This document shows positions 12,983 through 46,917 of a DNA stretch of 64,000 nt, one piece after another. The notes under the pieces are model-generated. The model saw only the letters and a program-made list of their open reading frames with translations. It was not told where the DNA came from and did not search any database. Source of the DNA: Falsiroseomonas stagni DSM 19981 (GTDB taxonomy: Bacteria > Pseudomonadota > Alphaproteobacteria > Acetobacterales > Acetobacteraceae); contig NZ_FOSQ01000011.1 of the NCBI RefSeq assembly GCF_900114315.1, positions 1 through 64,000 on the forward strand. The letters run 5' to 3'. How positions within the stretch are numbered: the stretch's first letter is position 1; every line of letters begins with the position of its first letter. A program made the translations under genes and the position numbers.

Positions 12983-13203
12983 TCGGGGAAAGGGCTCCGC
13001 CCCTTCCCCGAACCCCTTCCCCGCCGAGGGGCAGCGGCCCCTCGGAACCCATAAGATTGGTCGGTGAAGGGAGGGGCACCGAGCGCGCGTCGGACATGAA
13101 CGCGCGCGATGCCCCTCCCTTCACCTACCAATAACCTCGCGGTCCAGGGTCCCGCTGGACCCTGGCGGGGAGAGGTGCGGAGAGGGGCAGCGCCCCTCTC
13201 CGC
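12983..13203 (-). repeat. Polar hairpin-array intergenic element, copy A
   Basis: Five hairpins in order along the plus strand: 12983-13011 (triloop TCC), 13024-13045 (9-bp stem, loop AGCG), a central palindrome with 23-nt arms 13056-13078 and 13110-13132 (one mismatch, 31-nt loop with an inner GCGCGCGT/ACGCGCGC stem), 13144-13165 (9-bp stem CCAGGGTCC, loop CGCT) and 13177-13203 (12-bp stem, loop AGC). Read on the minus strand, the order of stem classes and loops matches copies B and C. It then lies 28 bp after the stop of the CitE-like gene, in that gene's direction, and upstream of the Bug gene. Confidence 0.85.
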
Positions 13204-13231
13204 GGCAACGAGCGCGACCCGCGCCCCGCCT

Positions 13232-14095
13232 TCACCCCCGCGTCGCGCGGGCCAGCAATCGCTTCGCGCGTTCCACGATGGGCAGGTCGATCATGGCGCC
13301 TTCGAAGGCGACGGCGCCGAGGCCCTTTGACAGCGCGTCGTCGAAGGCGGCGATGAGGCGGCGGGCGCGGTCGAGTTCGGCGGGGGTTGCGCCGTAGATC
13401 TCGTTGATGATCGGCACATGCGCGGGGTGGATGCAGGAGGCGGTGGCGAAGCCGAGGTTTTTCGCGCGGGTGAGCGCGGCGCGGTAGGCGTCGAGGTCGT
13501 CGATCTGGGCGAGGGCGCCGAGGGAGCCCATGGGCAGGATGTTGGCGCTGCGGGCGGCGGCGATGCAGTGCATGGCCCAGACATACATGCTGTCGGCGGA
13601 GGGGATGCCGCCGAATTCGGTGGCCAAATCCTCGGCGCCGACGGCGAGGGCCGCCATGCGCGGATCGGCGGCAGCGATGGCGTAGAGGTGGGGAAGCGAG
13701 GCGGCGGTCTCGGCCAGCGCCAGGAAACGCGTGCGGCCGATCGGGATGTTGTGGGCGGCTTCGCGCGTGGCGACGACTTCCGACAGCAGGCGGATATGTT
13801 CCGGCCCCATCACCTTGGGCAGGATCAGGCCCGTGGCGCCGGCGGCGATGGCGGCGGCGATGTCGGGCAGGGCGAGTTCCAGCGGCCGGTTGATGCGGAC
13901 GATGACGTCGGCGCCGGATTGGGAGACGCGCGGCGCGGCGGCGGCGAGGGCGTTGCGGGCGGCGTCCTTGGAATCGGGCGGGATGCTGTCTTCCAGGTCG
14001 AGGATGATCGCGTCGGCGCCGCGGGTATGCGCCTTGGCGATGAAGCGTTCGGCGGTGGCGGGGACGAAGAGAAGGGAGCGCCAGTTGGGGGTCAT
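13232..14095 (-). CDS. CitE/HpcH-type CoA-ester lyase (citramalyl-/malyl-CoA lyase-like)
   Basis: A 287-residue TIM-barrel lyase of the CitE-like family. It has WRSLLFVPATAERFIAKA at the start, the metal/CoA segment ADAIILDLEDSIPP, IVRINRP (substrate Arg), GLILPKVMGPEHI, ALAVGAEDLATEFGG (metal Glu/Asp) and CIHPAHVPIINEIY near the end. Such enzymes split citramalyl-CoA, malyl-CoA or related beta-hydroxyacyl-CoA esters to pyruvate/glyoxylate plus acyl-CoA. Its start codon overlaps the stop of the CoA-transferase gene by 4 bp, so the two are translationally coupled. This is the last gene of the four-gene operon; repeat copy A follows its stop. Confidence 0.85.
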   Translation of the reverse strand: MTPNWRSLLFVPATAERFIAKAHTRGADAIILDLEDSIPPDSKDAARNALAAAAPRVSQSGADVIVRINRPLELALPDIAAAIAAGATGLILPKVMGPEHIRLLSEVVATREAAHNIPIGRTRFLALAETAASLPHLYAIAAADPRMAALAVGAEDLATEFGGIPSADSMYVWAMHCIAAARSANILPMGSLGALAQIDDLDAYRAALTRAKNLGFATASCIHPAHVPIINEIYGATPAELDRARRLIAAFDDALSKGLGAVAFEGAMIDLPIVERAKRLLARATRG

Positions 14096-15297
14096 GGTGT
14101 CGGTGCTTTCGCGGCGCCGGCTTCCATCATCCGGGCGATCTGGGTCGTGTCGTAGCCGAGTTGCGCGAGGAGTTCCCGCGTCTGGGCGCCGAGCTGGGGG
14201 GCGGGCAGCTTGTCGTCGCGCATGCCGCCGCTGAAGCGGTTGGGGATGCGGGTGCGGCGGAGTGCGCCTTCGGTCGGGTGGGTTTCGGATTCGAAGAAAC
14301 CCACATCGGCCAGATGCGGGTCGGCCATCAGGTCCTCGAAGGTGTTGTAGCGGGCGCAGGGGATGTCGCGGGGGCCGAGGATGGCGAGCCATTCATCGGT
14401 GGTGCGCTGCGCCATGGCCGCCTTGCGGATGGAGAAGTAGTAGGGCGCGTTGGCGGTGCGGGCGCTGGCGCTGGACAGGCGCGGGTCCTGCTTGAGTTCG
14501 GGCTGGCCGATGGCGTCGAAGAATCCGAAGGCCTGGGCATCGGTGTTCGGGCCGATGGTGATGAAGCCGTCCTTCGTCGGCAGGGGGCGGTAGTCCGGGC
14601 TCAGCAGGCGGTTGTCGCCGGAGGGGCCGGTGGGCGGGTCGAAGGTGGCGGCGCCCATGTGCTCGCTCATGACGAAGCTTGCCATGTTCTCGAACATCGG
14701 CACCTCGATCGCCTCTCCCTTGCCGGTGCGCTCGCGGCGGAACAGGGCGAAGCCGATGCATTGCGCGGCGATCAGGCCGGTGACGTGGTCCGTCATCACC
14801 ATGGGCACGAAGCGGGGCTCGCCCGTGGCGCGGTGGAAGGTGGCGGCGACGCCGGAGAGCGACTGGATCACCGGGTCATAGGCCGGGCGGTTGGCGTAGC
14901 GACCCTCGCTGCCGAAGGCGAGGATGCCAACATGGATGAGGCGCGGGTTGAGCGCGGCGAGCGTCGCGGGATCGAGGCCGAGGCGTTCCAGCGCGTTGGG
15001 GCGGACATTGCTGACGAAGACATCCGCCGTCTCCAGCAGCTTCCGCATCGCCGCCATGCCGTCTTCCTGCTTCAGGTCCAGGCAGATGGAGCGCTTGTTG
15101 CGGTTGAACTGGATGAACTTGCCGGACATGCCGGGGTTGCGGCTGCCCTGCGCCAGGCGGCGGAGGATGTCACCCTCCGGCGGTTCCACCTTGATGACGT
15201 CGGCGCCCTGGTCGGCCAGCATCCGCGTGCAGATCGGCCCCACGACGACGGAGGTGAGGTCGATGACTCGGATGCCCTCCAGCGGCCCGCCGCTCAT
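14092..15297 (-). CDS. Class III (CaiB/BaiF) CoA-transferase
   Basis: A 401-residue family III CoA-transferase. The opening GPLEGIRVIDLTSVVVGPICTRMLADQGADVIKVEPP is the family hallmark, broken here as GPLEGIRVIDLTSVVVGP and TRMLADQGADVIKVEPPEGD. ICLDLKQEDG, DVFVSNVRPNALERLGLD and LRRTRIPNRFSG also fit. The expected catalytic aspartate lies in the segment GRYANRPAYDPVIQSLSG. It moves CoA between carboxylates, here presumably activating a C4/C5 dicarboxylate for the adjacent hydratase and lyase. ATG 15297 gives a 4-bp overlap with the hydratase stop and is preferred over GTG 15306. It overlaps the lyase start by 4 bp as well. Confidence 0.88.
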   Translation of the reverse strand: MSGGPLEGIRVIDLTSVVVGPICTRMLADQGADVIKVEPPEGDILRRLAQGSRNPGMSGKFIQFNRNKRSICLDLKQEDGMAAMRKLLETADVFVSNVRPNALERLGLDPATLAALNPRLIHVGILAFGSEGRYANRPAYDPVIQSLSGVAATFHRATGEPRFVPMVMTDHVTGLIAAQCIGFALFRRERTGKGEAIEVPMFENMASFVMSEHMGAATFDPPTGPSGDNRLLSPDYRPLPTKDGFITIGPNTDAQAFGFFDAIGQPELKQDPRLSSASARTANAPYYFSIRKAAMAQRTTDEWLAILGPRDIPCARYNTFEDLMADPHLADVGFFESETHPTEGALRRTRIPNRFSGGMRDDKLPAPQLGAQTRELLAQLGYDTTQIARMMEAGAAKAPTP

Positions 15298-16166
15298 GCG
15301 TCGCACTCCACGACCATCTCGGCGGCCTGGTGGCCATCCTTGTCGGCGACCCAGGCGCGAATGGTGGTGCCCTCGACCGCGCCTTCGAAGCGCGCGGTGT
15401 CGCCGACGAACAAGGGGCGCATGAGGCGGGCGGAGAAGGACCGGAGGGGACCGGGCGCGCGCTTCAGCGCGGAATCCAGCAGCAGGTGCATGGTCAACCC
15501 GCCATTCATCACCACGCCGGGATAGCCCTCCGCGCTGCGCGTGTAGTCGGCGTCGTAGTGGATGCGATGGGCGTTCCAGGTGATGGCGCCGTAGCGGAAG
15601 ACCTGCACGGGATCGAGCAGCGTGGAATCCGACCAGGCGGCGCCGGGCGGCGCGGGCATGGGTGCGGTGGTGGTGCTCGCGGCGCCGGGCGGGACGGCTT
15701 CCCGGTAGATCGCGTCGAACTCATCCACGACCAGGATCGCGCCGCGCGCCGTGATGGTGTGGCGCATGGTCAGGACCACGATGGTGCCGCTGCGCGCCGC
15801 CTTGGGCGCGATGGCGGCGACCTCCACCGTCTTGCTCGCATCATCGCCGACGCGGAGCGCGCCATGGATGCGCACGCGCCGCCCGGCACCCATGCGGCGA
15901 GGCAGCGGGATGGGCGGCAGGAACTCGCCCTTCCGCGGATGGCCGTCCGGGCCGATGGCGGAATGCCGCGCCACGTCGCTGAAGAACAGGTTGAACCAGT
16001 GGGAGGGGATTTCGCTGCCCTCCTGGAACGCATCCGGGTCCAGGTCGAAGGTGCCGGCGATGCGGCGCACGGCGGCCAGCGCGATGCGCTCCTCCACCAC
16101 GCGCTTGCGGCCGATCCAGCCGGTCAGTTCCGGCATCGCGGCGGCGACATCCTCGGCGGCGCTCAT
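15294..16166 (-). CDS. FAS1-like/MaoC-type acyl-CoA hydratase (mesaconyl-C4-CoA hydratase-like)
   Basis: A 290-residue double-hotdog protein. The N-terminal FAS1-like half carries EIPSHWFNLFFSDVARHSAIGPDGHP. The C-terminal half has the hydratase segment FRYGAITWNAHRIHYDADYTRSAEGYPGVVMNGGLT, with the catalytic Asp/His expected around NAHRIHYD and GVVMNGGL. Relatives include mesaconyl-C4-CoA hydratase of the 3-hydroxypropionate cycle and itaconyl-CoA hydratases, which form citramalyl-CoA, the substrate of a CitE-like lyase. Both ends overlap neighbouring genes by 4 bp (ATGA junctions at 16163-16166 and 15294-15297). The precise substrate is inferred from the operon. Confidence 0.8.
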   Translation of the reverse strand: MSAAEDVAAAMPELTGWIGRKRVVEERIALAAVRRIAGTFDLDPDAFQEGSEIPSHWFNLFFSDVARHSAIGPDGHPRKGEFLPPIPLPRRMGAGRRVRIHGALRVGDDASKTVEVAAIAPKAARSGTIVVLTMRHTITARGAILVVDEFDAIYREAVPPGAASTTTAPMPAPPGAAWSDSTLLDPVQVFRYGAITWNAHRIHYDADYTRSAEGYPGVVMNGGLTMHLLLDSALKRAPGPLRSFSARLMRPLFVGDTARFEGAVEGTTIRAWVADKDGHQAAEMVVECDA

Positions 16167-17137
16167 TCCGCGACGAGCCTCAGGCGGCGGACCAGCGCGG
16201 ACCAGATTTCGCCCCGCTGGCGCAGGAAGGCGCCGAATTCCTCCGGCGTGTTGGGCGCGGCGGGATCGGCGCCGACGCGGAGGAAACTCTCCCGCACCGA
16301 GTCGGTGCGCAGCGCGTCGTTCAGCGCGGCGTTCATGCGGGTGACGACCTCCGGCGGCGTGCGGGCGGGGACGGCGAGGCCGAAGGCGTTCACGGCCTCG
16401 TAGCCCGGCAGGGTCTCGGCCACCGTCGGCACATCGGGCCATTGCGGGTTGCGCTGCGTGCCGGTGACGGCCAGCGCGCGGATGGCGGCGTTGCCCTTCA
16501 CGGGTTCGGCTTCCGGCAGGCCGAGGCTGCGCGCCTGCACGCGGCCTGCCAGCAAGTCCGTCATGCCCTGGGTGGATTGCCGGTAGGGGACGTGCACCAT
16601 CTCGATCCCCGCCTTCTCCGACAGCAATTCCATGGAGAGATGCGTGGTCGCGCCGACGCCGGAGGAGGCGTAGTTGATCCGGCCGGGATTGGCCTTCGCA
16701 TAGGCGATGAACTCCGCCAGGTTCCGCACGGGCAGGCTGTTGTGCACCAGGATCACGTTCTGCGCGGTGGTGAAGAGCCCGATCGGCGCGAAGTCGCGCT
16801 GCCAGTCATAGCTCAGCGTGCGATAGAGCACCGCGTTCACGCCGCCGAGCGGGCCGGTCGAGCCCACCATCATCGTGTAGCCATCGGCGGGGGCGCGGCT
16901 GACGATCTCGGCGGCGAAATTGCCGGCCGCCCCCGGGCGGTTGTCGGCCAGGACGGGGGTGCCGAGGCGCTGGGCGATCGCCTCCCCGATCAGGCGGGAG
17001 ACGACGTCGGTCTGCCCGCCGCCGCCATAGGGGATGACCAGGCGGATGGGCCGCTCCGGCCAGGCGGCGAGCGCCAGGCGCGGCGCGGCCATTGTGATCG
17101 CGGCGCCGAGCGCGGCGCGCCGTCCGATCAGGACCAT
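16163..17137 (-). CDS. Bug/TctC-family binding protein, first gene of the CoA operon
   Basis: A 324-residue Bug protein. The signal peptide (residues 1-24, RRAALGAAITMAAPRLALA) is followed by WPERPIRLVIPYGGGGQTD, VLADNRPGAAGNFAAEIV, INYASSGVGATTHLSMELL, MVHVPYRQSTQGMTDLLAGRV and PTVAETLPGYEAVNAFGLAV. It should bind a carboxylate in the periplasm. The strong site GGAGGAAGCGAAGC precedes ATG 17137, and its stop overlaps the hydratase start, so binding protein, hydratase, CoA-transferase and lyase are made together. That linkage is the best clue that the ligand is the dicarboxylate the enzymes degrade. No matching permease is present. Confidence 0.87.
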   Translation of the reverse strand: MVLIGRRAALGAAITMAAPRLALAAWPERPIRLVIPYGGGGQTDVVSRLIGEAIAQRLGTPVLADNRPGAAGNFAAEIVSRAPADGYTMMVGSTGPLGGVNAVLYRTLSYDWQRDFAPIGLFTTAQNVILVHNSLPVRNLAEFIAYAKANPGRINYASSGVGATTHLSMELLSEKAGIEMVHVPYRQSTQGMTDLLAGRVQARSLGLPEAEPVKGNAAIRALAVTGTQRNPQWPDVPTVAETLPGYEAVNAFGLAVPARTPPEVVTRMNAALNDALRTDSVRESFLRVGADPAAPNTPEEFGAFLRQRGEIWSALVRRLRLVAE

Positions 17138-17366
17138 GCTTCGCTTCCTCCTGTCTTGTTGGAGGAAGCCTAGGCCCAGGACGGCGCGCCGCGCACCCCC
17201 CCTGGCGACCGTTTGACGATACCGGACGGGTCGGCTCCGCGGTGCTTTTCCGTCCCTGCCGCGTTGGTCGGCTTGCCGATGCAACCAGCATCGGCCGCGC
17301 CGCCCGCCTTGCAGGAACGAAAAATCCCCTACGGATCCTCAGCCGCCGGCATCGTCAAACGGTCGG

Positions 17367-19052
17367 TCATGCGATCGCAGGCTTCTTCAGAATGCGGAGC
17401 ATCAGCGCCGTGACGACCGTGCCCGCCACCAGCGCCACGATGTAGCCCAGCAGATGGGACACCGCGTTCGGGATGGGCAGCACGAAGATGCCGCCATGCG
17501 GCACGCGAAGCTCCGCGCCCACCATCATGGACAGCGCGCCCGCCACCGCGGAGCCCACGACGAGGGAGGGGATCACCCGCAGCGGGTCCTTGGCGGCGAA
17601 GGGGATCGCGCCCTCGCTGATGAAGGCCAGGCCCAGCACGCCGGCGGCCGGCGCGGCTTCCCGTTCCTCCGTGGTGAAACGGTCGCGGAAGAGATACGCG
17701 GCCAAGGCGAGGCCGAGCGGCGGCGTCATGCCAGCCGCCATGGCGGCGGCCATGGGCGCATAGACCTCGCTGGCGATGAGGCCCGTGGAGAAGGCGTAGG
17801 CCGCCTTGTTCACCGGCCCGCCCATGTCGAAGGCCATCATGGCGCCAATGATGAGGCCGAGCGCGATGGCGCCGCTGCCCTGCATGCCGCGGAGGAATTC
17901 CGTCAGCGCGGCCAGCGCGGTGGCCACCGGCCCGCCGGCCACGTAGATCATGAACAGCCCCGTCACCAGCGCGCCGGCGACGGGCAGGATGAGGACGGGC
18001 TTCAGCCCCTCCAGCGTCCGGGGCAGTTTCAGGTTGCTGTTGAGCCAGGCGACGAAGTAGCCGGCCACGAAGCCCGCCACGATGCCGCCGAGGAAGCCGG
18101 CATTGAGGTGCCCCGCGATCATGCCGCCGATCATGCCGGGCGCGATGCCGGGCCGATCCGCGATGGAATAGGCGATGTAGCCCGCCAGCGCCGGCACCAT
18201 CAGGGCCAGCGCCGCGCGCCCGCCGATCTGGAACAGCGCGCCGGCGAAGGTGCCCTTGTGCGCGTCGTCGAAGGCGTAGATGCCGCCGAAGGCAAAGGCC
18301 AGCGCCACCAGCAGCCCGCCCGCCACCACGAAGGGCAGCATGAAGGACACGCCCGTCATCAGATGCTTGTAGGGGCCGGTCAGCTGCTTCTTGCCGGGCG
18401 CGGGGGCGGCCGCGCTGCCGGCCTGGACCGTCGCCTCCGCGAAGGCGCGCGTCACCAGCGCCTTGCCGTCATTGATCGCGGGCTTGGTGCCGGACAGGAA
18501 CACGCGCTTGCCCCCGAAGCGCGCCAGATCCACCTGCGTATCGGCCGCGATCAGCACGAGGTCGGCCGCCGCGATATCCTCGGCCGTCAGGGTGTTCTGC
18601 GCGCCGACGGAGCCCTGCGTCTCCACCTTGATGCCGTGGCCGAGTGCCTTCGCCGCGCCTTCCAGCCCCTCCGCCGCCATGAAGGTGTGGGCGATGCCGG
18701 TGGGGCAGGAGGTGATGGCGACGATGCGCTTCGCACCCGACGTGGCGGGCGCGGCAATCGTCGGCGCCAGGGTGCGGTCCAGCACGGCCATGGCGTCGGC
18801 CAGCACGTCCTCCACCTTCGCGCGGATCGGCGTCAGCGCGGCCAGCGCCCCGGGCGGCTCGGCATCGCCGACCAGCAGCAGGGCATCGGCCTCCGGCTGC
18901 GCCGGCAGCGGGTGCAGCACGCCGCGGGGGGTGCGGATTTCCACCGTCAATTCACGGCCACCCTTCCGGGCGGCCTGGCGCAGCGCTTCCGCCGCCAGCA
19001 TGGCCTGGACGGGGTTGTCGCCCCCCTCCACCACCGCGATCACGCCGGACAT
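17367..19052 (-). CDS. fruA: Fructose-specific PTS enzyme IIB'BC
   Basis: A 561-residue membrane protein. Residues 1-100 are a degenerate IIB' domain. A functional IIB domain follows, with the phosphocysteine C116 in [17 protein letters not shown]. From about residue 225 the IIC domain has about ten hydrophobic helices and the conserved [17 protein letters not shown] and [16 protein letters not shown] motifs. It imports fructose and phosphorylates it to fructose 1-phosphate. GGAGG lies 7 bp before ATG 19052, and the gene follows fruK by 13 bp. It completes the fruB-fruK-fruA operon. The region from its stop to the Bug gene (17138-17366) contains nothing recognisable. Confidence 0.95.
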
Positions 19053-19065
19053 GTCGTTTCCTCCG

Positions 19066-19992
19066 TCATTCGATGGGTTCGGGGCGGAGCGTGGCGGCAA
19101 TCGCCTCCACCGCCGCGCGGCCGGGAATCTGGGCGCCGGTCTTCTGCAACTTGCCCGCGGCGAAGGCGGTGGCGCGGCAGGCCAGCGCCGGCAGCGGCAG
19201 ATTGTCGGCGAGGCCGGCGACGATCCCCGCCACCATCGCATCCCCCGCGCCGACGCTGCTGGTGACGGGCACCGCGGGCGGATGTACGCGCAGCGCGGCA
19301 TCGGCGGTGACGAACAAGGCGCCCTCCCCGCCCATGGAGACGACGACCAGGCCCACGCCCCGCGCCACCAGGCGGCGCGCGGCGCCGAGCAGCGCGGCGG
19401 CGTCGGGCAGCGCATGGCCGACCAGGCCTTCCAACTCGTGCCGGTTCGGCTTGATGGCGTGCGGCATCACGGCGCCGTCCAGCAGCGCCTTCAAGGCCGC
19501 GCCGCTGGCATCCGCCACCACGCGCACGCCGCGCGCCACCAGCGTCGCGGTCAGGCGGGCATAGATGTCGGACTGCACCCCACGGGGCAGGCTGCCGCAC
19601 AGCACGGCGATATCCCGCGCCTGTTCCGCCGCTGCGATGCAGGCGTCCAGCGCGGCGCCATCGGGCGCCAGGCCGGGCAGGTTGATGTCCGTGGTCTCGC
19701 CGCTCGACCGGTCCAGCAGCTTGATGTTGGTCCGCGTCTCGCCGGGGATGCGCGTGCAATGGTCCGCGATGCGTTTTTCCGTGAACAGCGCGCGGAAGAT
19801 CGCGTCATTGTCGGCGCCGAGCAGCCCGGTGGCGGTGACCGCCGCGCCCCAATCCGCCAGGCAGGAGGCGACGTTGATCCCCTTCCCCGCGGCATGGCGT
19901 TCCTGGCCCACGGCCGGGTTCACCTGGCCCGGCAGCAATGCCTCCAGCGCCACCGTCACATCGATGGCGGGATTGAGCGTGAGGGTGAGCAT
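19066..19992 (-). CDS. fruK: 1-phosphofructokinase
   Basis: A 308-residue PfkB-family kinase. The start [19 protein letters not shown] is typical of FruK/Lac[21 protein letters not shown] carries the substrate-binding glycines, and [17 protein letters not shown] contains the catalytic GAGD aspartate. It converts fructose 1-phosphate to fructose 1,6-bisphosphate in the cytoplasm. Translation most likely begins at ATG 19992, which shares one base with the fruB stop (TGATG); a GTG one codon earlier is also possible. Position between fruB and fruA makes the assignment firm. Confidence 0.95.
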
Positions 19993-22532: not shown

Positions 22533-22568
22533 CTGGACGTTCCTGCCTGACGCTTCGCTGTCGTGAAT

Positions 22569-22580
22569 GAAAACGTTTCC
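22569..22580. promoter_or_regulatory. Operator-like palindrome for the LacI-family regulator
   Basis: GAAAACGTTTCC is a near-palindrome centred on ACGT, the classic half-site pattern of LacI/FruR repressors. It lies 37 bp upstream of the fruB start and in the divergent gap to the regulator gene, so one site could control both promoters. Binding is inferred. Confidence 0.65.
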
Positions 22581-22676
22581 ACACCCCCTGTCAAAGGGTT
22601 TTTCAAGCCCGGCAACGACGAGGCGGCGGAAAGGCGTTGATGGGCTGGCAGCGTGGCGCCATGCTGGGGCAGGCTC

Positions 22677-23678: not shown

Positions 23679-23681
23679 GCC

Positions 23682-26195: not shown

Positions 26196-26203
26196 GCCGC
26201 TTG

Positions 26204-36380: not shown

Positions 36381-36389
36381 CGGCCGCGA

Positions 36390-39105: not shown

Positions 39106-39119
39106 CACCGGACTCCCTG

Positions 39120-39392
39120 CTATGCCTGGGGCAGGGTAGTCCCGAAGGGCTCCTCGATCCCAGCCCGGGCGAGGTCCGCCGCCAGCCGGCCTGCGGGGTC
39201 ATCGCCGCGCCGCACCGCCTCCGCCGCCGACAGCGCATAGAGCAGCAGCGCCGGACCCGCGAGCCCGATGCGCAGCCCGACGCGGCCGGCGCGCGCCAGC
39301 GCGTCCCGCGCCCGGGGATCGTCCCCCGCCATCTCGGCCAATGCCTCCAGCCCATCCCCCGCCAGGGGACCCGGCCTGCCGGAATCAACCAT
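39120..39392 (-). CDS. Small hypothetical protein, 90 aa
   Basis: A 90-residue frame from ATG 39392. The product is Ala/Leu/Arg-rich and helical, with a mildly hydrophobic centre (VGLRIGLAGPALLLYALSAA). It has no recognised domain. A ribosome site is weak. Its close spacing (14 bp) to the HAD gene on the same strand is the main support for it being real; it could also be a chance frame in high-GC DNA. Confidence 0.45.
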   Translation of the reverse strand: MVDSGRPGPLAGDGLEALAEMAGDDPRARDALARAGRVGLRIGLAGPALLLYALSAAEAVRRGDDPAGRLAADLARAGIEEPFGTTLPQA

Positions 39393-39635
39393 GCCGCGAC
39401 GCGGCCATCACACCACCCCTCCCGTCATCCGCGCCGCCTGGCGGCGCATGAACATCCTGTCAGCCCACGCGAACCCATAGCCGCCGGAATCGGCGGAACC
39501 GAGTGACGTAAGGTTACAGGAAATTCACGCGGACCGCACCCCCCCTCCCCGACCCTCCCATGCAACCCTTGCCCCGGCCGGGCATCGGGGGCAGAGAAGC
39601 GCCCCCTCTCATCCTCCCCGGATGCCCAGCACGCC
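39393..39635. other. Divergent promoter gap before serA
   Basis: This 243-bp region lies between the leftward small gene and serA and has slightly lower GC around 39440-39530 (for example GTGACGTAAGGTTACAGGAAATTC). That is a sensible place for the serA promoter, but I could not assign -35/-10 boxes or an attenuator with confidence. Confidence 0.3.
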
Positions 39636-40883
39636 ATGAACGACCGCATCTCCCTCCCCAAGGACCGCATCCGCATCCTGCTGCTGGAAGGCATCGCGGA
39701 CAGCGCCGTCGACCTGTTCGGCTCCGCCGACTACGTGACCATCACGCGGGAGAAGAAGGCGCTGGAAGGCCAGGCGCTGATCGAGGCGGTGAAGGGGGTG
39801 CATATCCTCGGCATCCGGTCCCGCACCGAGGTGACGGAGGAAGTGCTGGCCGCCGCCGACCGGCTGATCGCCATCGGCTGCTTCTGCATCGGCACCAACC
39901 AGGTGGACCTGGCCGCCGCCGCCCGCCGGGGCGTGGCCGTGTTCAACGCCCCCTTCAGCAACACCCGCAGCGTCGCCGAACTCACCTTGGCGGAAGCCGT
40001 GATGCTGATGCGCGGAATCGTCGAGAAGTCGAACAGCGCCCACACCGGCGGCTGGGACAAGTCGGCCGCCAATAGCTGGGAGATGCGGGGCAAGACCCTC
40101 GGCATCGTCGGCTACGGCAATATCGGCAGCCAGCTTTCCGTCCTGGCGGAAGCCTTCGGCATGCGGGTTCTCTACCACGACCACACCGGCAAGCTGCCGC
40201 ATGGCAACGCCAGCCCGGCCGCGTCGCTGAAGGACCTGATGACGCAGTCGGACGTGGTGACCATCCATGTGCCGGAAACGCCCGACACCGTCGGCATGAT
40301 CGGCGCGCGCGAACTGGGCTGGATGAAGCCCAGCGCCATCTTCATCAACAACGCCCGCGGCACGGTCGTGGATGTGGACGCGCTGGCCGATGCGCTGCGG
40401 GAAAAGCGCATCCTCGGCGCCGCCGTGGACGTCTTCCCGGTGGAGCCCAAGCGCAACGGCGACCCCTTCACCAGCCCGCTCCAGGGCCTGCCCAACGTGA
40501 TCCTGACGCCCCATATCGGCGGCAGCACGGCGGAAGCGCAGGACCGGATCGGCCAGGAAGTGGCCCGCAAGCTGGTGGACTACAGCGACACCGGCGCGAC
40601 CATGGGCTCCGTCAACCTGCCGCAGGTGCAACTGCCCGTCCGCCCCGCCGGCGCCCGCTGGACCCACCTGCACCGGGACGCACCCGGCATGCTGTCCCGC
40701 ATCAACGAAAGCTTCGGCCGCCGCGGCCTGAACATCACCGCCCAGTACTACCAGACGGATTCCGAACTCGGCTACATCGTGGTCGAAAGCGTCGAAGCCC
40801 GTGCGGAAGCGGAAGCGATCCTGGCCGAGCTGCGCGAACTGCCGGGCACCGTGCGGGCGCGCCTGATCTACGAGCGGCGCTGA
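39636..40883 (+). CDS. serA: D-3-phosphoglycerate dehydrogenase with C-terminal ACT domain
   Basis: A 415-residue short-form SerA. The opening LPKDRIRILLLEGIADSAVDLF matches E. coli-type enzymes. The NAD fold has LGIVGYGNIGSQLSVLAEAF, and active-site residues sit in INNARGTVVDVDALADAL (Arg), VDVFPVEP (Glu) and TPHIGGSTAEAQ (His). The ACT domain at residues about 340-415 (HRDAPGMLSRINESFG) allows serine feedback inhibition. It catalyses the first step of serine synthesis from 3-phosphoglycerate. Repeat copy B starts 8 bp after its stop, in the same orientation. Confidence 0.95.
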   Translation: MNDRISLPKDRIRILLLEGIADSAVDLFGSADYVTITREKKALEGQALIEAVKGVHILGIRSRTEVTEEVLAAADRLIAIGCFCIGTNQVDLAAAARRGVAVFNAPFSNTRSVAELTLAEAVMLMRGIVEKSNSAHTGGWDKSAANSWEMRGKTLGIVGYGNIGSQLSVLAEAFGMRVLYHDHTGKLPHGNASPAASLKDLMTQSDVVTIHVPETPDTVGMIGARELGWMKPSAIFINNARGTVVDVDALADALREKRILGAAVDVFPVEPKRNGDPFTSPLQGLPNVILTPHIGGSTAEAQDRIGQEVARKLVDYSDTGATMGSVNLPQVQLPVRPAGARWTHLHRDAPGMLSRINESFGRRGLNITAQYYQTDSELGYIVVESVEARAEAEAILAELRELPGTVRARLIYERR

Positions 40884-40891
40884 GGGTGGCC

Positions 40892-41099
40892 TGCAGGGCG
40901 GGCTCCGCCCCCCTGCACCCCCCGCCAGGAGCCAGCGGGCTCCTGGACCTCATGCTTTGCATCGATGGGTGATGGGAGGGGCACGGAACGCCCGCCTGTC
41001 CGGCGGCACCGCCATGCCCCTCCCATCACCCATCGATTGAAGGGGGTTCAAAGGGGCCGCTGCCCCTTTGCGGGGGTGCAGGGGGCAGAGCCCCCTGCA
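40892..41099 (+). repeat. Polar hairpin-array intergenic element, copy B
   Basis: Hairpins in order: 40892-40917 (triloop TCC), 40925-40946 (9-bp stem CCAGGAGCC, loop AGCG), a central palindrome with perfect 23-nt arms 40961-40983 and 41015-41037 around a 31-nt loop, 41049-41070 (9-bp stem CAAAGGGGC, loop CGCT) and 41077-41099 (10-bp stem, triloop AGA). The arms end in GGGAGGGGCA as in copy A; at least three differences from copy A are matched in the opposite arm. It fills the gap between the convergent serA and the AapJ-like gene (stop at 41106). Confidence 0.88.
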
Positions 41100-41105
41100 A
41101 GGCCA

Positions 41106-42137
41106 TCACCTGATCGGCGGCGCGTACATCAGGCCGCCGCGCGTCCACAAATCGTTCACGCCGCGCGGCAGGCCCACGGGCGATCCGGCGCCAAGGTGGC
41201 GGTCGAAGATCTCGCCGTAGTTCCCCACGGCCTTGATGGCGTTGTAGGCCCAGCGCCGGTCGAGGCCCATGAAGGGGCCGTGGTCGCCGGAGACGCCGAG
41301 CAGGCGGCGCACATCGGGGCGTTCGCTGCGCAGCATCTCGTCCACATTGGCTTGCGTGACGCCGAGTTCCTCGGCCTCGATCAGCGCGAAGATGGTCCAG
41401 CGGACGATGTCGAACCACTGGTCGTCGCCCTGGCGGACCGCGACGCCGAGGGGTTCCTTCGAGATGAGCTCGGGCAGGACCATGTGCTCCGCGGGGTTGC
41501 GGAGTGCGGTGCGCGTGCCGGCGAGCTGGGAGGCATCGGTGGTGAAGACGTCGCAGCGGCCGGACTGGTAGGCGACGCGGGTTTCGTCGTTGTTCTCGAA
41601 GACCAGGGGGCGGACGGTCAGACGGTTGGCGCGCGCCCAGTCCGCCAGGTTGAGTTCGCTGGTGGTGCCGGCGGTGACGCAGAAGGTCGCGCCGTCGAGC
41701 TGCGTGGCGCGCGTGACGCCGAGGCTGCGGCGGATCAGGAAGCCCTGCCCGTCGTAGAAGTTCACCGCGGTGAAGTTGAGGCCGTTGGCGGTGTCGCGCG
41801 AATGGGTCCAGGTGGTGGTGCGCGGCAGGACATCGATCTGCCCGGCCTGGAGCGCCGTCATGCGGGTGGAGGAGGTGAGCGTGGTGAAGCGCACCTTGTT
41901 GCCGTCGCCGAGCACCGCGGCGGCGACCGCGCGGCAGGTATCGGCATCGAGCCCGGCATAGGTGCCGCGGCTGTCCATGACGCCGAAGCCCGGCGCGCCG
42001 GGATGGCCGCCGCAATCGACCACGCCCTTGGCGCGTACGGCGGTCAGCGTCGGCCCGGCGGAGACGACGCTTTGCGCGAGGGCCGGCAGCGCCGTGACGG
42101 CAAGCAAGCCCAGCGCCGCGACTGTGCTGCGGATCAT
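41106..42137 (-). CDS. Amino-acid ABC-type periplasmic binding protein (AapJ/YhdW-like)
   Basis: A 343-residue family 3 binding protein. The signal peptide (1-21, ending LPALAQ) is followed by LTAVRAKGVVDCGGHPGAPGFGVMDSRGTYAGLDAD, read as GVVDCGGHPGAPGF, and by LPRTTTWTHSRDT, FYDGQGFLIRR, CVTAGTTSELNLADW and MGLDRRWAYNAIKAVGNYGEIFDRHLG, the AapJ-type C-terminus. AapJ proteins feed the AapQMP general L-amino-acid ABC transporter, but no aapQMP genes follow. Instead its ATG overlaps by 4 bp the stop of a TAXI-TRAP permease gene. It may work with a distant ABC permease or represent an unusual partnership. Confidence 0.88.
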   Translation of the reverse strand: MIRSTVAALGLLAVTALPALAQSVVSAGPTLTAVRAKGVVDCGGHPGAPGFGVMDSRGTYAGLDADTCRAVAAAVLGDGNKVRFTTLTSSTRMTALQAGQIDVLPRTTTWTHSRDTANGLNFTAVNFYDGQGFLIRRSLGVTRATQLDGATFCVTAGTTSELNLADWARANRLTVRPLVFENNDETRVAYQSGRCDVFTTDASQLAGTRTALRNPAEHMVLPELISKEPLGVAVRQGDDQWFDIVRWTIFALIEAEELGVTQANVDEMLRSERPDVRRLLGVSGDHGPFMGLDRRWAYNAIKAVGNYGEIFDRHLGAGSPVGLPRGVNDLWTRGGLMYAPPIR

Positions 42138-44047
42138 CCTGTTCCCCCCTGGTTGAGGCGCGCGGTGCGTGCCGCCGCCCATTGGAATCCCGCGATCCCG
42201 CCCAGCACGCAGGCCGCGATCAGGAAGCGCGTCGTGTCGTCCAGCACATGGGCGAAGGCGGCGACCAGCCCCGTCGCGGCCATGAGCAGGCGGACCGGCC
42301 AGCCCACCGGCGCCAGCAGGAAGCCGGCATAGCTGGCGGTGATCAGCGTCAGCGCCACCACCTGGTTCGATGTCGCCAGGATGATGTCGAAGGCCGATCC
42401 GCGGAACATGATGCCGGGGTCGTAGATGAAGGCGAAGCCCACGGTGAAGCCGGCGATGCCGAAGCGGGTCGCGTGCACGCTGGTGATGGTGGGGCTGGCC
42501 TTGGCGATCGCCGCCGCCGCGAAGGCCGCCGCCGCCACGGGTGGCGTCGCATCCGCGATCACCGCGAAGTAGAAGACGAAGAGGTGCGCCGCCAGCGGGT
42601 CCACGCCGATGCTGCGGCCCAGTTCCAGCACCTGCGGCACGCCGATCGCGGCGGCGATGATGTAGGACGGCGTCGTCGGGATGCCGAGGCCGAGCACCAG
42701 CACCGTCAGCGCCAGCAGCACCAGCAGCAGGCCGAGATTGCCATCCGCCAGCCCCTTGATGATGCCGCCGAAGGCCACGACCATCCCCGTCGCCGTCAGG
42801 GCGGAGACGACGATGCCCGCGCCGGCGATGGAGACCGCCAGCGGTGCCATGGTCAGCCCCGCCTGGGCCAGGCTCTCCACGATGTCCCGCAGGCTCATCC
42901 GCGTGCGCTTCTTCAGCATGGCGACGACGACCATGGCGACGGTGGCGCAGAAGGCGGCGTAGTTGCCCGACCAGCGCTCCATCATCATCCAGACCAGCAC
43001 GGCGATGGGCAGCACCAGGTGGACATCGGCCAGGACTTCCCGCCAGGCGGGGATGTCCTTCAGCGGCATGCCGGTCATGCCCTGCTTCTTCGCCTCGAAA
43101 TGCACGGCGGCGAGGATGGCGAAGTAATAGAGAACTGCACCAATAGCCGCGGCGATGACGATATCGCCATAGGGGATGTTGGTGATCTCCGCCATCACGA
43201 AGGCGGCCGCGCCCATCACCGGCGGCATCAGCGCGCCGCCGACGGAAGCCGCACTCTCGATCCCGCCCGCGACGGCGGGCTTGTAGCCGATGCGCGTCAT
43301 CAGCGGGATCGTCATCGCGCCCGTGGTGATGACGTTGGAGACGGAGGACCCGCTCATCGTCCCGAAAAGGCCGGAGGTGATGACGGCGACCTTGGCCGGC
43401 CCGCCGGTGTAGCGCCCGGCGGCGGCGGCGCCGAGGTTGCTGAACAGCCGCCCCGTGCCGCTGCCCTGCATGAAGCTGCCGAACAGGATGAAGACGGCGA
43501 TGGTGGTGGCGACGATGCCGGTCAGCGGGCCATAGACGCCGCCCGCGGTCGGCACCAGCCAGGCGGCTTCGACGATCTCCTGCGGCGTGAAGGGGCGGGC
43601 GTTGAAGATGCCCGGCACCAGGTAGCCCCACTGCATGTAGGCGAGGCTGCCCGCCACCATCCAGGCCAGGCCCGGTTCCACCGCGCGCCGCGTCGCTTCC
43701 AGCAGCGTGACGATGCAGGTGATGCCGAGCACCATCATCATGGGCGTGAAGGGATCGACGTATTCCATGCGGTCCGCGACCGCCATCCAGTTCCACATCA
43801 CCCAGGCATGCGGCGCCGCGGCCGCGACCGCCCAGGCCCAGTCGAGCACCGAGGGTCGCCGCGCCGGGGATTTCCCGGGCCGCGCGGGATAGAGCAGGAA
43901 CAGGATCGGCACGAAGACGAGCAGGTGGAACCCGCGCATCTGGATGGGTTCAGGGAATCCCACCGCGCCGAAATAGAGATGGACCGCGGCAGCCGCCGCG
44001 GCCCATGCCCAGCACACCCACTTCAGCGGGCCCGAAAGATCACGCAT
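42134..44047 (-). CDS. TRAP transporter fused small/large permease (TAXI type)
   Basis: A 637-residue inner-membrane protein with about 16 or more hydrophobic helices. The N-terminal part corresponds to the small DctQ-like subunit. The large DctM-like part has the conserved GSFMQGSGTGRLFSNLG, GLFGTMSGSSVSNVITTGAM, ESAASVGGALMPPVMGAAAF and LGLGIPTTPSYIIAAAIG. It uses an ion gradient to bring in the ligand handed over by a TAXI binding protein, which is encoded 28 bp upstream (44076-45077). Substrates of TAXI-TRAP systems are often glutamate-like or other carboxylates. Its stop overlaps the start of the AapJ-like gene. Confidence 0.92.
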   Translation of the reverse strand: MRDLSGPLKWVCWAWAAAAAAVHLYFGAVGFPEPIQMRGFHLLVFVPILFLLYPARPGKSPARRPSVLDWAWAVAAAAPHAWVMWNWMAVADRMEYVDPFTPMMMVLGITCIVTLLEATRRAVEPGLAWMVAGSLAYMQWGYLVPGIFNARPFTPQEIVEAAWLVPTAGGVYGPLTGIVATTIAVFILFGSFMQGSGTGRLFSNLGAAAAGRYTGGPAKVAVITSGLFGTMSGSSVSNVITTGAMTIPLMTRIGYKPAVAGGIESAASVGGALMPPVMGAAAFVMAEITNIPYGDIVIAAAIGAVLYYFAILAAVHFEAKKQGMTGMPLKDIPAWREVLADVHLVLPIAVLVWMMMERWSGNYAAFCATVAMVVVAMLKKRTRMSLRDIVESLAQAGLTMAPLAVSIAGAGIVVSALTATGMVVAFGGIIKGLADGNLGLLLVLLALTVLVLGLGIPTTPSYIIAAAIGVPQVLELGRSIGVDPLAAHLFVFYFAVIADATPPVAAAAFAAAAIAKASPTITSVHATRFGIAGFTVGFAFIYDPGIMFRGSAFDIILATSNQVVALTLITASYAGFLLAPVGWPVRLLMAATGLVAAFAHVLDDTTRFLIAACVLGGIAGFQWAAARTARLNQGGTG

Positions 44048-44075
44048 CCCGGCGTGCGAGGATACCGGCGGCCGT

Positions 44076-45077
44076 TCAGGCCGCCGGCATCACGCCCGCT
44101 TCGCGGAAGGCACGCGCGGCGCCGGGGTGCAGCGGCAGGCCGTTGTACTTCCAGGCCTCCCGCGGGTTGAAGGCGGCGCAGGACGCATGGATCTGCGTCA
44201 GCCGCGGCCCGGCATGCTTGATGAGGGTGCGGGTGATGCCATAGGCCACGGGCTCCGGCAGCGAATTATGGACCATGATGACGGTGTCCATCGTCGTCAC
44301 CATCATGTCCTGCGTCTGGCCAAGGCTCGGATAGGTGTTCGCCGGCAGCAGGCCCTGGTTGTAGGCGAAGGTGTCCTGCAGGTGCTTCCGCACATCCTCC
44401 GGCCACGCCACCATCCGCGTGGCGCGGCGGCCCTGGCCGATCTCGGTCAGGATCGCGGCCGGCTTGGCGAGCGCGCAGTACAGGTAGTCCACCTGGCCGT
44501 CATTGTAGGCCGCCGCGATATCGGCATAGGACCCGTTGAGGTAGCGGCCACCGGAGTTCCGGATCGCGTCCGGGCTGGTGCCGAGGAAGCGCAGGATGCG
44601 CTGCAGCGTCATCTCATCCGTGCTGGAGCGCTGCGGGCAGGCGATCCGCAGGCCGCGCTGGGTCAGGATCTCCCGCATCCCCTCCGGCCCCGCATCGGCG
44701 CGGCGGATCAGATTGTGCTCGGTCGGGCTGTAGCCGACGCCCAGTGAGGAGATGTTCTCGTGCTTGGCCGTGTAGGGTTCCTCGCCCCGCGCGGCGGCGG
44801 CGGCGAAGGCATCGATGCCGAAGCCGACCTGGGACTGGTTGTTGTTCACGCGGGTGGAATTGGCGAGGCCACCGCCCGGCACGACGCGCAGCCGGATCTG
44901 CGGATTCTCCTCCGCGATCAGGGAGGAGAAGCCAGCGGCGATGGTGTACCATCCGCCGCCGACCGACCCCGCCACGAATTCGAAGGTCTGCTGCGCCTGC
45001 GCCGTGCGCATGAAGGGGGATGCCAGCGCGGCGGCGGCACCCAGCAGCGCGGCGCGCCGCGGAACGAACAGGGCCAT
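44076..45077 (-). CDS. TAXI-family TRAP transporter solute-binding protein
   Basis: A 333-residue TAXI-type binding protein. It has an N-terminal signal (PRRAALLGAAAALASPFMRT, ending AQAQ) and the fold start FEFVAGSVGGGWYTIAAGFS. It continues with RVVPGGGLANSTRVNNNQSQVGFGID, read as VPGGGLANSTRVNNNQ, then LGVGYSPTEHNLIRR and GSYADIAAAYNDGQVDYLYC. The start at ATG 45077 has GGGAGAGACAAGAC upstream. It belongs with the fused permease gene that follows. The ligand is unknown; the conserved glycine-rich loop marks the family rather than a substrate. Confidence 0.9.
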   Translation of the reverse strand: MALFVPRRAALLGAAAALASPFMRTAQAQQTFEFVAGSVGGGWYTIAAGFSSLIAEENPQIRLRVVPGGGLANSTRVNNNQSQVGFGIDAFAAAAARGEEPYTAKHENISSLGVGYSPTEHNLIRRADAGPEGMREILTQRGLRIACPQRSSTDEMTLQRILRFLGTSPDAIRNSGGRYLNGSYADIAAAYNDGQVDYLYCALAKPAAILTEIGQGRRATRMVAWPEDVRKHLQDTFAYNQGLLPANTYPSLGQTQDMMVTTMDTVIMVHNSLPEPVAYGITRTLIKHAGPRLTQIHASCAAFNPREAWKYNGLPLHPGAARAFREAGVMPAA

Positions 45078-45182
45078 GTCTTGTCTCTCCCAACCTCGAC
45101 CTGAGGCGGCGATCATGCGCGGCATTGCGCGGGCTGGGCAAGGCCCGGCATCCTTGCGTCTCCGTAAGCTGGGAGTCCCTCC

Positions 45183-46769
45183 ATGCGCCGCCGTACGCTA
45201 CTGACCACCCTCGCCGCCGCCCCCCTCGCCGCCCGCGCCGCCCCCGCCCTCGCCCAGGGCAGCGCGGCCACCACGCTGCGCTACATGCCGCAGGCGGACG
45301 TCACCTCCATCGACCCCATGAGCACGACGAGCTACGGCGTCCGCAACCACGGCCATATGTGCTGGGACACGCTCTACGGCCCGGACGAGAATTTCGTCAT
45401 CCGCCCGCAGCTGGCCGCCGGCCACACGGTGGAGGATGACGGGCTGCGCTGGACCTTCACGCTGCGGCCCGGCGTGCGCTTCCACGACAACGAACCGGTC
45501 CGCGCGCGCGACGCCGTCGCCTCCATCCAGCGCTGGTGGGCGCGGGACACGCTGGGCCAGACGCTGCGGGACCGGACGGACGCGATCACGGCGCTGGACG
45601 ACCGGCGCTTCGAGATCCGCCTGAAGCAGCGCTTCGGCCCGATGCTGGAAGCACTCGGCAAGCCCAGCTCCTACCCCTGCTTCATCTTCCCCGAACGCTT
45701 CGCCACCGTCGATCCGGCCCGCCCCTTCACGGAAGTCGTGGGATCGGGCCCCTATCGCTGGGTGGCCGCCGAACGCCTCTCCGGCGCCCGCGCCGTCTAC
45801 CAGCGGTTCGAGGGCTATGTCCCGAACCCCGCCGCGCCCAGCCTGCTCGGCGGCGCCAAGATGGCGCATTTCGAACGCGTGGTCTTCAACTGGATCCCCG
45901 ATGCCGGCACCGCCGCCGCCGCGCTGCAATCCGGCGAGATCGACATGTACGAACAGGTGGCGCCCGATTTGCGCGGCCTGCTGGCACGCCACCGCGACGT
46001 GGTGCTGGACCGCGTGGATACCGGCGGCCTGGTCGCGCATCTCCGCTTCAACCAGCTGCACGCGCCCTTCGACGATCCGGCCGTGCGCCGTGCCCTGCTG
46101 CATTCCATCAACCAGTCCGACTTCATGACCTCCATCATGGGCAATGACAGGCGCCTCTGGTCCGATGGCATCGGGGCCTTCCCCACCGCATCGCCGCTCG
46201 CGAATGACGAGGGGATCGCGGCCATGACATCCCCCCGCAGCGTGGACCGCGCGCGGGAAGCGCTCCGCGCCACGGGCTACGCCAATACGCCCGTCACCGT
46301 CCTGCACCCCACCGACGTCACCAACAACAACACCCTGACCACGCTGCTGACGGACGTGATGAAGCGCAGCGGCCTGAACGCCGACAGCGCGACCAGCGAC
46401 TGGGCCACCGTCCTGCAACGCCGCGCCAACCAGAACCCGCCCGGCCAGGGCGGGTGGAATGCCCTCATCGTCCTGTTCGGCGGCGTGGATTTGGCCAACC
46501 CCGGCGTCCACCCGCTGCTGCGCGGCAATGGCCGCCAGGCCTGGTTCGGCTGGCCCACCAGCCCGACCCTCGAAACACTCCGCGACGAATGGCTGGCGGC
46601 ACCGGACCTCAATGCGCAAAGGCCCATCGCCCGCCGCGTCCAGGCCGCGCTGTGGCAGGACGCGCCCTACATCCCGCTCGGCCAATACTACACCGACGCC
46701 GCCTGGCGCCGCGGGCTGACGGGAATCCAGAAGGGGATGACACTGCCGCTGAACATCCGCCGGGGGTGA
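45183..46769 (+). CDS. Peptide/nickel-type (family 5) ABC transporter binding protein
   Basis: A 528-residue SBP_bac_5 protein. The signal peptide (1-25, MRRRTLLTTLAAAPLAARAA) leads into ATTLRYMPQADVTSIDPM, then LAAGHTVEDDGLRWTFTLRPG, VRARDAVASIQRWWARDTLG, VGSGPYRWVA and LRFNQLHAPFDDPAVRRALL. These bind peptides, sugars or other small solutes for Dpp/Opp-like permeases. None is encoded here, so it is an orphan. GGGAG lies just before ATG 45183. Copy C of the hairpin element begins 9 bp after its stop. Confidence 0.9.
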   Translation: MRRRTLLTTLAAAPLAARAAPALAQGSAATTLRYMPQADVTSIDPMSTTSYGVRNHGHMCWDTLYGPDENFVIRPQLAAGHTVEDDGLRWTFTLRPGVRFHDNEPVRARDAVASIQRWWARDTLGQTLRDRTDAITALDDRRFEIRLKQRFGPMLEALGKPSSYPCFIFPERFATVDPARPFTEVVGSGPYRWVAAERLSGARAVYQRFEGYVPNPAAPSLLGGAKMAHFERVVFNWIPDAGTAAAALQSGEIDMYEQVAPDLRGLLARHRDVVLDRVDTGGLVAHLRFNQLHAPFDDPAVRRALLHSINQSDFMTSIMGNDRRLWSDGIGAFPTASPLANDEGIAAMTSPRSVDRAREALRATGYANTPVTVLHPTDVTNNNTLTTLLTDVMKRSGLNADSATSDWATVLQRRANQNPPGQGGWNALIVLFGGVDLANPGVHPLLRGNGRQAWFGWPTSPTLETLRDEWLAAPDLNAQRPIARRVQAALWQDAPYIPLGQYYTDAAWRRGLTGIQKGMTLPLNIRRG

Positions 46770-46778
46770 ACGCGCTGT

Positions 46779-46917
46779 GCGAGAGGGACGCTGTCCCTCT
46801 CGCGCTCTCCCTGCCAGGGTCCAGCGGTGCCCCTCCCTCGATCGACCAATCTCAAGGGTGCCAAGGGGCCGCTGCCCCTTGGTGGGTGGGGCTCGGGGAG
46901 GGCGACGCCCTCCCCGA
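46779..46917 (+). repeat. Polar hairpin-array intergenic element, copy C (core half-deleted)
   Basis: Intact hairpins are 46779-46803 (11-bp stem, triloop GCT), 46861-46882 (9-bp stem CCAAGGGGC, loop CGCT) and 46893-46917 (11-bp stem, triloop GAC). Between them lie only the left arm and loop of the AGCG hairpin (46814-46826, CCAGGGTCC plus AGCG) and the right 23-nt arm of the core (46828-46850). The right arm of the AGCG hairpin, the left core arm and the core loop are missing, as if removed by one deletion of about 90 bp. Confidence 0.82.

What the first reader, a model, noticed from the sequence alone, without database searches (positions are those of the whole stretch)
12983..46917. A polar, covarying hairpin-array element found three times, each just after a stop codon
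Seen directly: copies A (12983-13203, read on the minus strand), B (40892-41099) and C (46779-46917) share one order. They run outer triloop hairpin, 9-bp stem with loop AGCG, 23-bp core with 31-nt loop, 9-bp stem with loop CGCT, outer triloop hairpin. Stem sequences differ but stay paired: AGCG-side stems are CCAGGGTCC, CCAGGAGCC and CCAGGGTCC; CGCT-side stems are CCGAGGGGC, CAAAGGGGC and CCAAGGGGC. The core arms of A and B differ at several places that are mostly matched across the stem, and all end in GGGAGGGGCA. With A inverted, every copy starts 8, 9 or 28 bp after a gene's stop codon in that gene's direction. Compensatory change and fixed polarity argue for a functional 3' RNA or DNA structure rather than decayed repeats. 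I know of no named family with this layout, but G/C-rich hairpins of this type are common between alphaproteobacterial genes.
Basis: partly seen in the sequence, partly recalled or inferred. Interest (0 to 1): 0.82.

Follow-up and report, generated by a model that had tools for sequence, protein, structure and literature searches.

The report
Flipping nested palindromes after bacterial genes
These are copies of a repeated, multi-hairpin DNA element that sits right after genes, often between two genes that face each other, in many relatives of this bacterium; it is found flipped around between species, so its matched stem changes probably reflect how palindromic DNA copies itself rather than a one-way RNA signal.

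Summary
The hairpin arrays are real, though copy C has lost half its AGCG stem and one core arm. They belong to a dispersed family: 83 places in this Falsiroseomonas-like genome, 15 of 15 genus genomes examined, own included, and 67 of 200 genomes (36 of 102 genera) of its family. The stems covary, but "fixed polarity" is wrong. Of 81 own copies with genes called on both sides, 41 lie between convergent genes; the 36 co-directional ones split 19:17 in orientation. At 28 orthologous loci the array is inverted in 28 of 79 comparisons, at 12 loci, A and C included. Stems favour G-T no more than A-C (41 and 39 of 6,171 pairs), unlike selection on an RNA. No Y1/RAYT transposase was found; 21 of 23 top-scoring copies outside the window adjoin the same two genes in another species.

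Best reading: nested palindromic gene-end DNA whose stems and flips come from template switching between arms. It probably acts, on both strands, as a two-sided transcript-end barrier (function inferred). It works like BIME/REP arrays but fails defining REP features.

The parts
12983..13203 (-). Array A, complete copy (gene direction: minus strand), between an HpcH/HpaI-family lyase gene and a TctC-family receptor gene
   Evidence: (157.6 bits)
13177..13203 (-). A outer triloop hairpin next to the stop codon (GGAGAGGGGC type)
13144..13165 (-). A L-stem, CCAGGGTCC-AGCG-GGACCCTGG
13056..13132 (-). A core hairpin (arms 13056-13087 and 13101-13132 by the tool, 91% complementary)
13024..13045 (-). 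A R-stem, CCGAGGGGC-CGCT-GCCCCTCGG
12983..13011 (-). A outer triloop hairpin, far side (GGGGAAAGGGC type)
40892..41099 (+). Array B, complete copy filling most of a 222-bp convergent intergenic region (phosphoglycerate dehydrogenase gene > < family-3 solute-binding protein gene, PF00497)
   Evidence: (157.7 bits)
40892..40917 (+). B outer hairpin, left
40925..40946 (+). B L-stem, CCAGGAGCC-AGCG-GGCTCCTGG
40961..41037 (+). B core hairpin (arms 40961-40986 and 41012-41037, 96% complementary)
41049..41070 (+). B R-stem, CAAAGGGGC-CGCT-GCCCCTTTG
41077..41099 (+). B outer triloop hairpin, right; ends 6 bp from the stop codon of the convergent gene
46777..46917 (+). Array C, internally deleted copy: outer hairpins 46777-46805 and 46893-46917, R-stem 46861-46882; only half of the L-stem (46814-46827) and the 3' core arm (from 46828) remain
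   Evidence: 41.2 bits

Best explanation
The element is a dispersed DNA element made of nested inverted repeats: outer hairpin, L-stem, core, R-stem, outer hairpin, about 140-220 bp in A, B and C, with a loose terminal repeat outside in about half of the ends looked at. It occupies the space after stop codons, above all between convergent genes. SHOWN: it is a dispersed family; its best copies are old at their sites; its stems covary with no preference for G-T over A-C; and the array is found inverted between orthologous loci. INFERRED evolutionary mechanism: template switching or hairpin-primed copying between arms during replication, which rewrites one arm from the other and flips what lies between, plus exchange between copies. 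INFERRED function: because both strands give the same hairpins and orientation does not matter, the array serves as a two-sided gene-end boundary that hinders read-through and protects 3' ends of transcripts arriving from either side. It works like BIME/REP arrays and bidirectional terminators, but with no U-tail clearly above chance and no Y1 transposase found in this genome.
For: Covariation on 16 copies: 94.0% of cells paired, 78 cells with both-side changes, 0/500 shuffles; slid controls 41-56% paired. Stem pairs in copies of 120 nt or more of six genomes: 6,171 pairs, of which 41 G-T, 39 A-C, 36 other non-Watson-Crick; in gene-sense orientation of co-directional copies G-U 12 and A-C 14. 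In tRNAs of the same genome 43 of 828 drawn pairs are G-T. Inversion: 28 inverted, 45 direct, 6 unresolved of 79 comparisons; 12 of 28 loci. The clearest is L056/L268: about 235 bp match far better as reverse complement while both gene flanks match directly. Of six loci held for G000, G005, G012 and G013, four (A, C, L056, L080) show the split {G000,G012}|{G005,G013} and two show no inversion. Flanks of these loci favour (G000,G013) with 373 against 164 and 134 two-two columns, so flips recurred unless array regions were exchanged between lineages. Core spacer flipped inside an unflipped array: G005A/G013A, score 22 inverted, -2 direct. Placement: 41 of 81 convergent against 25 of 274 other junctions, Fisher p 7e-15; divergent 4 of 81. 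Fetched copies of five relatives: 39 of 68 convergent, 1 divergent. Shared sites: of the 23 best-scoring own copies outside the window, 22 have both flanks, and 21 both flanks adjoining, at an array locus of at least one relative.
Against: No evidence on transcription, termination or RNA protection. U-tailed terminators are hardly above chance at array ends (10 of 118; shuffled 6) and rare elsewhere too (9 of 102; shuffled 0), so the boundary role rests on position only. In-place inversion is not proved for every case: in 30 comparisons called inverted by model strand the orthologue is the nearest fetched copy in 12, within the top three in 22 and lower in 8, and core spacers carry little locus-specific signal (2 of 65 orthologous loop pairs exceed the 99th percentile of unrelated pairs, one flipped and one direct). 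Replacement by another copy, in either direction, must also occur; locus B looks like that. For L286/L307, L275/L279 and L075/L291 the model's strand and the alignment disagree. The near-perfect pairing is partly built in, because cores and hairpins were picked by few mismatches. B is missing in G013, where 3,084 bp lie between the two genes.
Confidence: 0.5

Rival explanations
1. Neutral or selfish relic: an old amplified palindromic repeat with no function. Template switching alone keeps the arms matched, and selection against insertions in genes and promoters leaves it only after stop codons.
For: Orientation varies freely, G-T is not favoured over A-C, many reduced forms exist (43 of 82 examined own places span under 120 nt), C is a deletion derivative, and B is gone in G013.
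Against: 21 of the 23 best own copies outside the window adjoin the same two genes in another species with flanks mostly 85-93% identical. Placement is biased to convergent space (41 of 81), although co-directional junctions are far commoner elsewhere (195 of 274).
Confidence: 0.3
2. REP/BIME-type element moved by a RAYT (Y1 tyrosine transposase).
For: Placement as reported for REPs (between convergent and unidirectional ORFs; PMC3733652, passages); palindromic; dozens of copies.
Against: PF01797 (Y1_Tnp): 0 matches in this genome (98.56% complete), while 5 of 14 control genomes ring. GTAG or CGTC at the foot of 0 of 158 hairpins in tag orientation. Much longer unit than 20-40 bp. Sites shared between species.
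Confidence: 0.07
3. A polar, strand-specific 3' RNA element.
For: Compensatory stems; position after stop codons.
Against: 19:17 and 13:13 orientation relative to genes; inversion at A, C and ten other loci; no excess of G-U over A-C in gene-sense orientation.
Confidence: 0.03
4. Topological element: cruciforms or protein-binding sites (gyrase is recalled for E. coli BIMEs) that handle supercoils between convergent genes, with no role in RNA.
For: Convergent enrichment; DNA-level matching of stems. PMC1525189 notes that REPs often lie between convergent genes, where transcription builds up supercoiling (passages).
Against: 36 of 81 copies lie between co-directional genes; binding could not be tested.
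Confidence: 0.1

Closest known systems
BIME / REP arrays (GTAG- and CGTC-tagged REPs)
   Same: Multi-copy extragenic palindromes, placed after genes between convergent or unidirectional ORFs (PMC3733652, passages).
   Different: Long nested array with a core of about 22-26-bp arms; no GTAG/CGTC tag at 158 hairpin feet in tag orientation; no Y1 transposase found in the genome; found inverted between species. That paper says CGTC repeats are missing in Acetobacteraceae.
Inverted repeats evolving by template switching (yeast genes; rRNA and microRNA hairpins)
   Same: Arm homogenization, both-side changes and spacer inversion (PMC8604942 and PMC8794818; abstracts and passages).
   Different: Spacer inversions reported there are short (2-5 bp substitutions in yeast; loops typically 4 nt, up to 7-8 nt in rRNA). 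Here one spacer of about 30 nt and arrays of roughly 235 bp are found flipped, in a dispersed repeat.
Bidirectional intrinsic terminators between convergent genes (recalled as a class; listings)
   Same: Strong hairpins readable on both strands in convergent intergenic regions.
   Different: No U-tails clearly above chance at array ends (10 of 118 against 6 shuffled); several hairpins instead of one; dispersed homologous family.
DNA segments inverted by site-specific recombinases (recalled; PMC5903667 seen in the listing only)
   Same: A segment between inverted repeats found in both orientations.
   Different: No gene in the segment; the terminal motif is about 11 bp and matched with up to two changes at only 9-11 of 22 ends per side. 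No recombinase was searched for.

Membership tests
REP/BIME (RAYT-associated) | Y1 tyrosine transposase (RAYT) in the genome | tested here: not met
   PF01797: 0 matches in own genome at E <= 0.001; 5 of 14 controls positive
REP/BIME (RAYT-associated) | GTAG or CGTC tag at the foot of the palindrome | tested here: not met
   0 of 158 hairpins in 39 own copies carry either tag within 6 nt of a foot in tag orientation; opposite orientation 0 GTAG and 2 CGTC; random positions 0.5-3.1
REP/BIME (RAYT-associated) | Short unit of 20-40 bp | tested here: not met
   The repeated unit is the whole array
REP/BIME (RAYT-associated) | Extragenic, after genes, convergent or unidirectional | tested here: met
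   41 convergent, 36 co-directional, 4 divergent of 81
Rho-independent (intrinsic) bidirectional terminator | G+C-rich hairpin followed by a U-tract | tested here: not met
   10 of 118 array-associated 3' ends against 6 in shuffled sequence
Rho-independent (intrinsic) bidirectional terminator | RNA 3' ends formed at the site | not testable with these tools
   Needs Term-seq
Rfam RNA families | Match at or above gathering score | tested here: not met
   0 in the window. A permissive search of five array loci gave 30 matches, all to microRNA precursor models and all below gathering
Conserved structured RNA | G-U tolerated more than A-C on the transcribed strand | tested here: not met
   G-U 12 and A-C 14 in gene-sense orientation; small numbers
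Template-switch-maintained inverted repeat | Homogenized arms together with spacer inversion | tested here: met
   79 both-side against 7 one-sided core changes, in 25 pairs picked by identity and few mismatches; inversions at 12 of 28 loci; core-spacer flip G005A/G013A. A single switch event was not reconstructed.
Recently active MITE | Lineage-specific insertions with empty orthologous sites | tested here: inconclusive
   In the syntenic stretches of three relatives no clean empty site was seen for A, B or C; B is missing in G013 but other DNA lies there. Not surveyed genome-wide.

The most novel reading that the evidence does not exclude
A family-wide class of flipping nested palindromes: orientation-free, two-sided gene-end insulators whose multi-stem structure is renewed by replication template switching instead of base-by-base compensatory selection, with array inversion as a normal part of their life history.
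Probability: 0.35. Interest if true: 0.8.

Novelty: new variant of a known kind. Interest (0 to 1): 0.6.

Why it matters
Covariation is usually read as proof of a selected RNA structure. Here strong covariation occurs together with frequent inversion and no preference for G-U over A-C, so it can arise at the DNA level. Monttinen and Loytynoja (PMC8794818, passages seen) expected a compensatory change with a loop inversion to be the strongest support for template switching and found such cases extremely rare; this repeat offers at least 28 orthologous loci on which to look for it. If the boundary function holds, it would also help to explain how a high-G+C genome with few U-tailed terminators separates convergent genes.

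Tried and rejected
RAYT/REP origin: rejected on PF01797 absence, tags and unit size. Rfam membership: none. Canonical terminators: uninformative, because U-tails are rare at other gene ends too. Palindromes growing into gene ends as a general rule: in 80 convergent copies of all fetched genomes only L055 (22 bp across both stop codons) and L082 (12 bp) exceed the longest value of the mismatched controls (11). Independent flipping of the core spacer as a general rule: weaker than it first looked. With a margin of 6 score units 13 of 31 resolved comparisons seemed inverted, but loops of unrelated copies are also alike, and at the 99th percentile of unrelated pairs only 2 of 65 remain, one inverted and one direct. 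The tRNA control showed no A-C pair, but ARAGORN probably draws only canonical and G-U pairs, so only its G-U share is used. The alignment behind misplaces the core arms of four of 16 copies (L007, L015, L021, L024), so its 94.0% is probably too low.
Full report
WHAT IS THERE. A and B are complete hairpin arrays; C is an internally deleted one. The layout is quasi-palindromic: AGCG and CGCT loops are reverse complements and the core is an inverted repeat, so the layout itself is the same on both strands. Polarity exists only in sequence: L-stem CCAGG.., linker ACC.., outer hairpin often of GGAGAGGGGC type on one side; R-stem often ..AAGGGGC and outer hairpin often of GGGGAAGGGGC type on the other. 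B starts 8 bp after one stop codon and ends 6 bp from that of the convergent gene.

HOW MANY. B as DNA gave 59 matches in the own genome. A covariance model from 16 copies (alignment, model) gave 124 matches at E <= 0.01, many on both strands of one place because of the palindrome. I count 83 places. Only 150 of 11,977 first-look candidates were scored, so there may be more, while the weakest matches (about 32-36 bits) may be chance. Of the 82 places examined, 39 span 120 nt or more and 43 less; coreless forms span about 73-83 nt. Two coreless copies (L022, L023) look like precise losses of the core between its ATCGAT ends; at one of them, L080, the relatives keep a core.

WHERE. With a codon-usage gene finder of my own, trained on the window, 81 of 82 own places had genes on both sides: 41 convergent, 19 and 17 co-directional in the two orientations, 4 divergent. 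Other junctions in the same stretches: 25 of 274 convergent (Fisher p 7e-15) and 54 of 274 divergent. These stretches were chosen around arrays, a few overlap, and a second array in a stretch counts as other; in the window itself 7 of 54 junctions are convergent. Sixty-eight copies of five relatives, taken from the top of the hit list and many of them orthologous to own copies, gave 39 convergent, 13 and 13 co-directional (up to three of ambiguous orientation), 1 divergent, 2 unknown. Another 29 loci, some in the former set too, gave 12 convergent, 9 and 6 co-directional, 2 divergent.

WHO HAS IT. 15 of 15 genomes of the genus including the own, 4 of 8 other genomes of the family, 0 of 16 outside it. 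In a family-wide sample 67 of 200 genomes and 36 of 102 genera at E <= 1e-5, with 15 candidates scored per genome. Five loci of more distant genera keep the layout with other stem sequences. The Rhodovarius orthologue of the B region holds a similar-looking array that the model does not report at E <= 0.1.

INVERSION. At locus A, after the same gene, the own genome and G012 have the array in one direction and G005 and G013 in the other; on the far side of A the relatives have about 1.1 kb more DNA. At C the split is the same, though the G012 cassette is of another length class. I assembled 28 orthologous groups; left out were L062, whose flanks match different loci, and pairs with a single matching flank; in A and L055 one flank adjoins only in part of the genomes. 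Aligned in the gene frame, 45 of 79 comparisons are direct, 28 inverted and 6 unresolved at a margin of 20; 12 of 28 loci have at least one inversion, 4 of them between co-directional genes. In L056/L268 about 235 bp match far better as reverse complement while the gene flanks match directly; the change lies near a terminal GGCGCGGGT. Among fetched copies (7 to 24 per genome) the orthologue is the most similar in 41 of 76 comparisons; of 30 called inverted by model strand it is first in 12 and within the top three in 22. So several events look like inversion in place, while replacement from another copy cannot be excluded for the rest. At B the inner cassette of G005 and G012 is of another subtype than the window's inside similar outer parts, which looks like replacement, and in G013 the array is missing with 3,084 bp between the two genes. 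Flank columns favour (G000,G013), against the {G000,G012}|{G005,G013} orientation split at four of six four-genome loci, so flips recurred unless array regions were exchanged between lineages. Assembly error is unlikely, because the repeats at the ends are far shorter than usual assembly words (inference).

RNA OR DNA. The stems covary. In 477 hairpins with 6,171 pairs, G-T (41) is no commoner than A-C (39); in gene-sense orientation of co-directional copies it is 12 and 14. My finder penalises both alike but limits mismatches, so only their ratio is informative. In tRNAs of the same genome 43 of 828 drawn pairs are G-T. In 25 comparable orthologous cores 79 pair changes are on both sides and 7 leave one copy unpaired; cores had been picked by few mismatches and pairs by 60% identity, so this too leans towards perfect pairing. 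The spacer of G005A and G013A is flipped inside an otherwise direct array; elsewhere spacer flips are uncertain, and orthologous spacers are seldom more alike than unrelated ones. Arm homogenization and spacer inversion are what template switching is reported to cause (PMC8604942, abstract and passages; PMC8794818, abstract and passages).

FUNCTION. Orientation-free, palindromic, tight against stop codons, and shared between species (21 of the 23 best copies outside the window adjoin the same genes elsewhere): the simplest role is a two-sided gene-end barrier. This is inference. There are no U-tails clearly above chance and no transcript data.

KNOWN OR NEW. In eight literature searches none of the listed titles and abstract openings describes this repeat in Acetobacteraceae or Roseomonas; most lists were capped, and only the open-licence library was searched. 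PMC3733652 (passages) describes REP placement and says CGTC repeats are missing in Acetobacteraceae. RepRanger (PMC12306157, passages) counts 1,369 REPs in Lichenicola cladoniae, which is in Acetobacteraceae; whether these include this element was not tested. I file it as a new variant of interspersed palindromic repeats.

Noticed in passing
window 46777-46917 (array C): C is an internal deletion: it lost the second half of the L-stem, the 5' core arm and the loop; fuller arrays stand at the orthologous site in G005, G012 and G013.
   Followed up: yes
L055 (G000:C15:29443-34596) and L325 (G106), array flanks: In L055 the palindrome runs through the stop codons into the coding ends of both convergent genes (22 bp identical ends); in L325 the outer arms form a similarly long palindrome containing a TAA.
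   Followed up: partly
window 40884-41105 and L239, L241: Same intergenic region, similar outer parts, but another inner cassette (short core with ACTTCG loop) in G005 and G012: exchange at an occupied site.
   Followed up: partly
window 40884-41105, orthologous stretch of G013 (L263): In G013 3,084 bp lie between the two genes and no array is reported there.
   Followed up: no
window 12867-13231: The three relatives have about 1.1-1.2 kb more here, beyond the array, than the own genome.
   Followed up: no
window 17138-17366: About 160 bp present in the own genome and absent from three relatives (66-67 bp there); no hairpin was found in it.
   Followed up: no
a locus among those scanned for tRNA: ARAGORN calls a tRNA-Ala in what reads like a coreless hairpin array, and a permissive Rfam search matches cores to microRNA models: an annotation hazard.
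   Followed up: no
L165 (Rhodovarius crocodyli), about 6243-6420: A similar hairpin array (CCAGGAGATAATATCTCCTGG ...) in the orthologous region after the phosphoglycerate dehydrogenase gene, not reported by the model at E <= 0.1.
   Followed up: no
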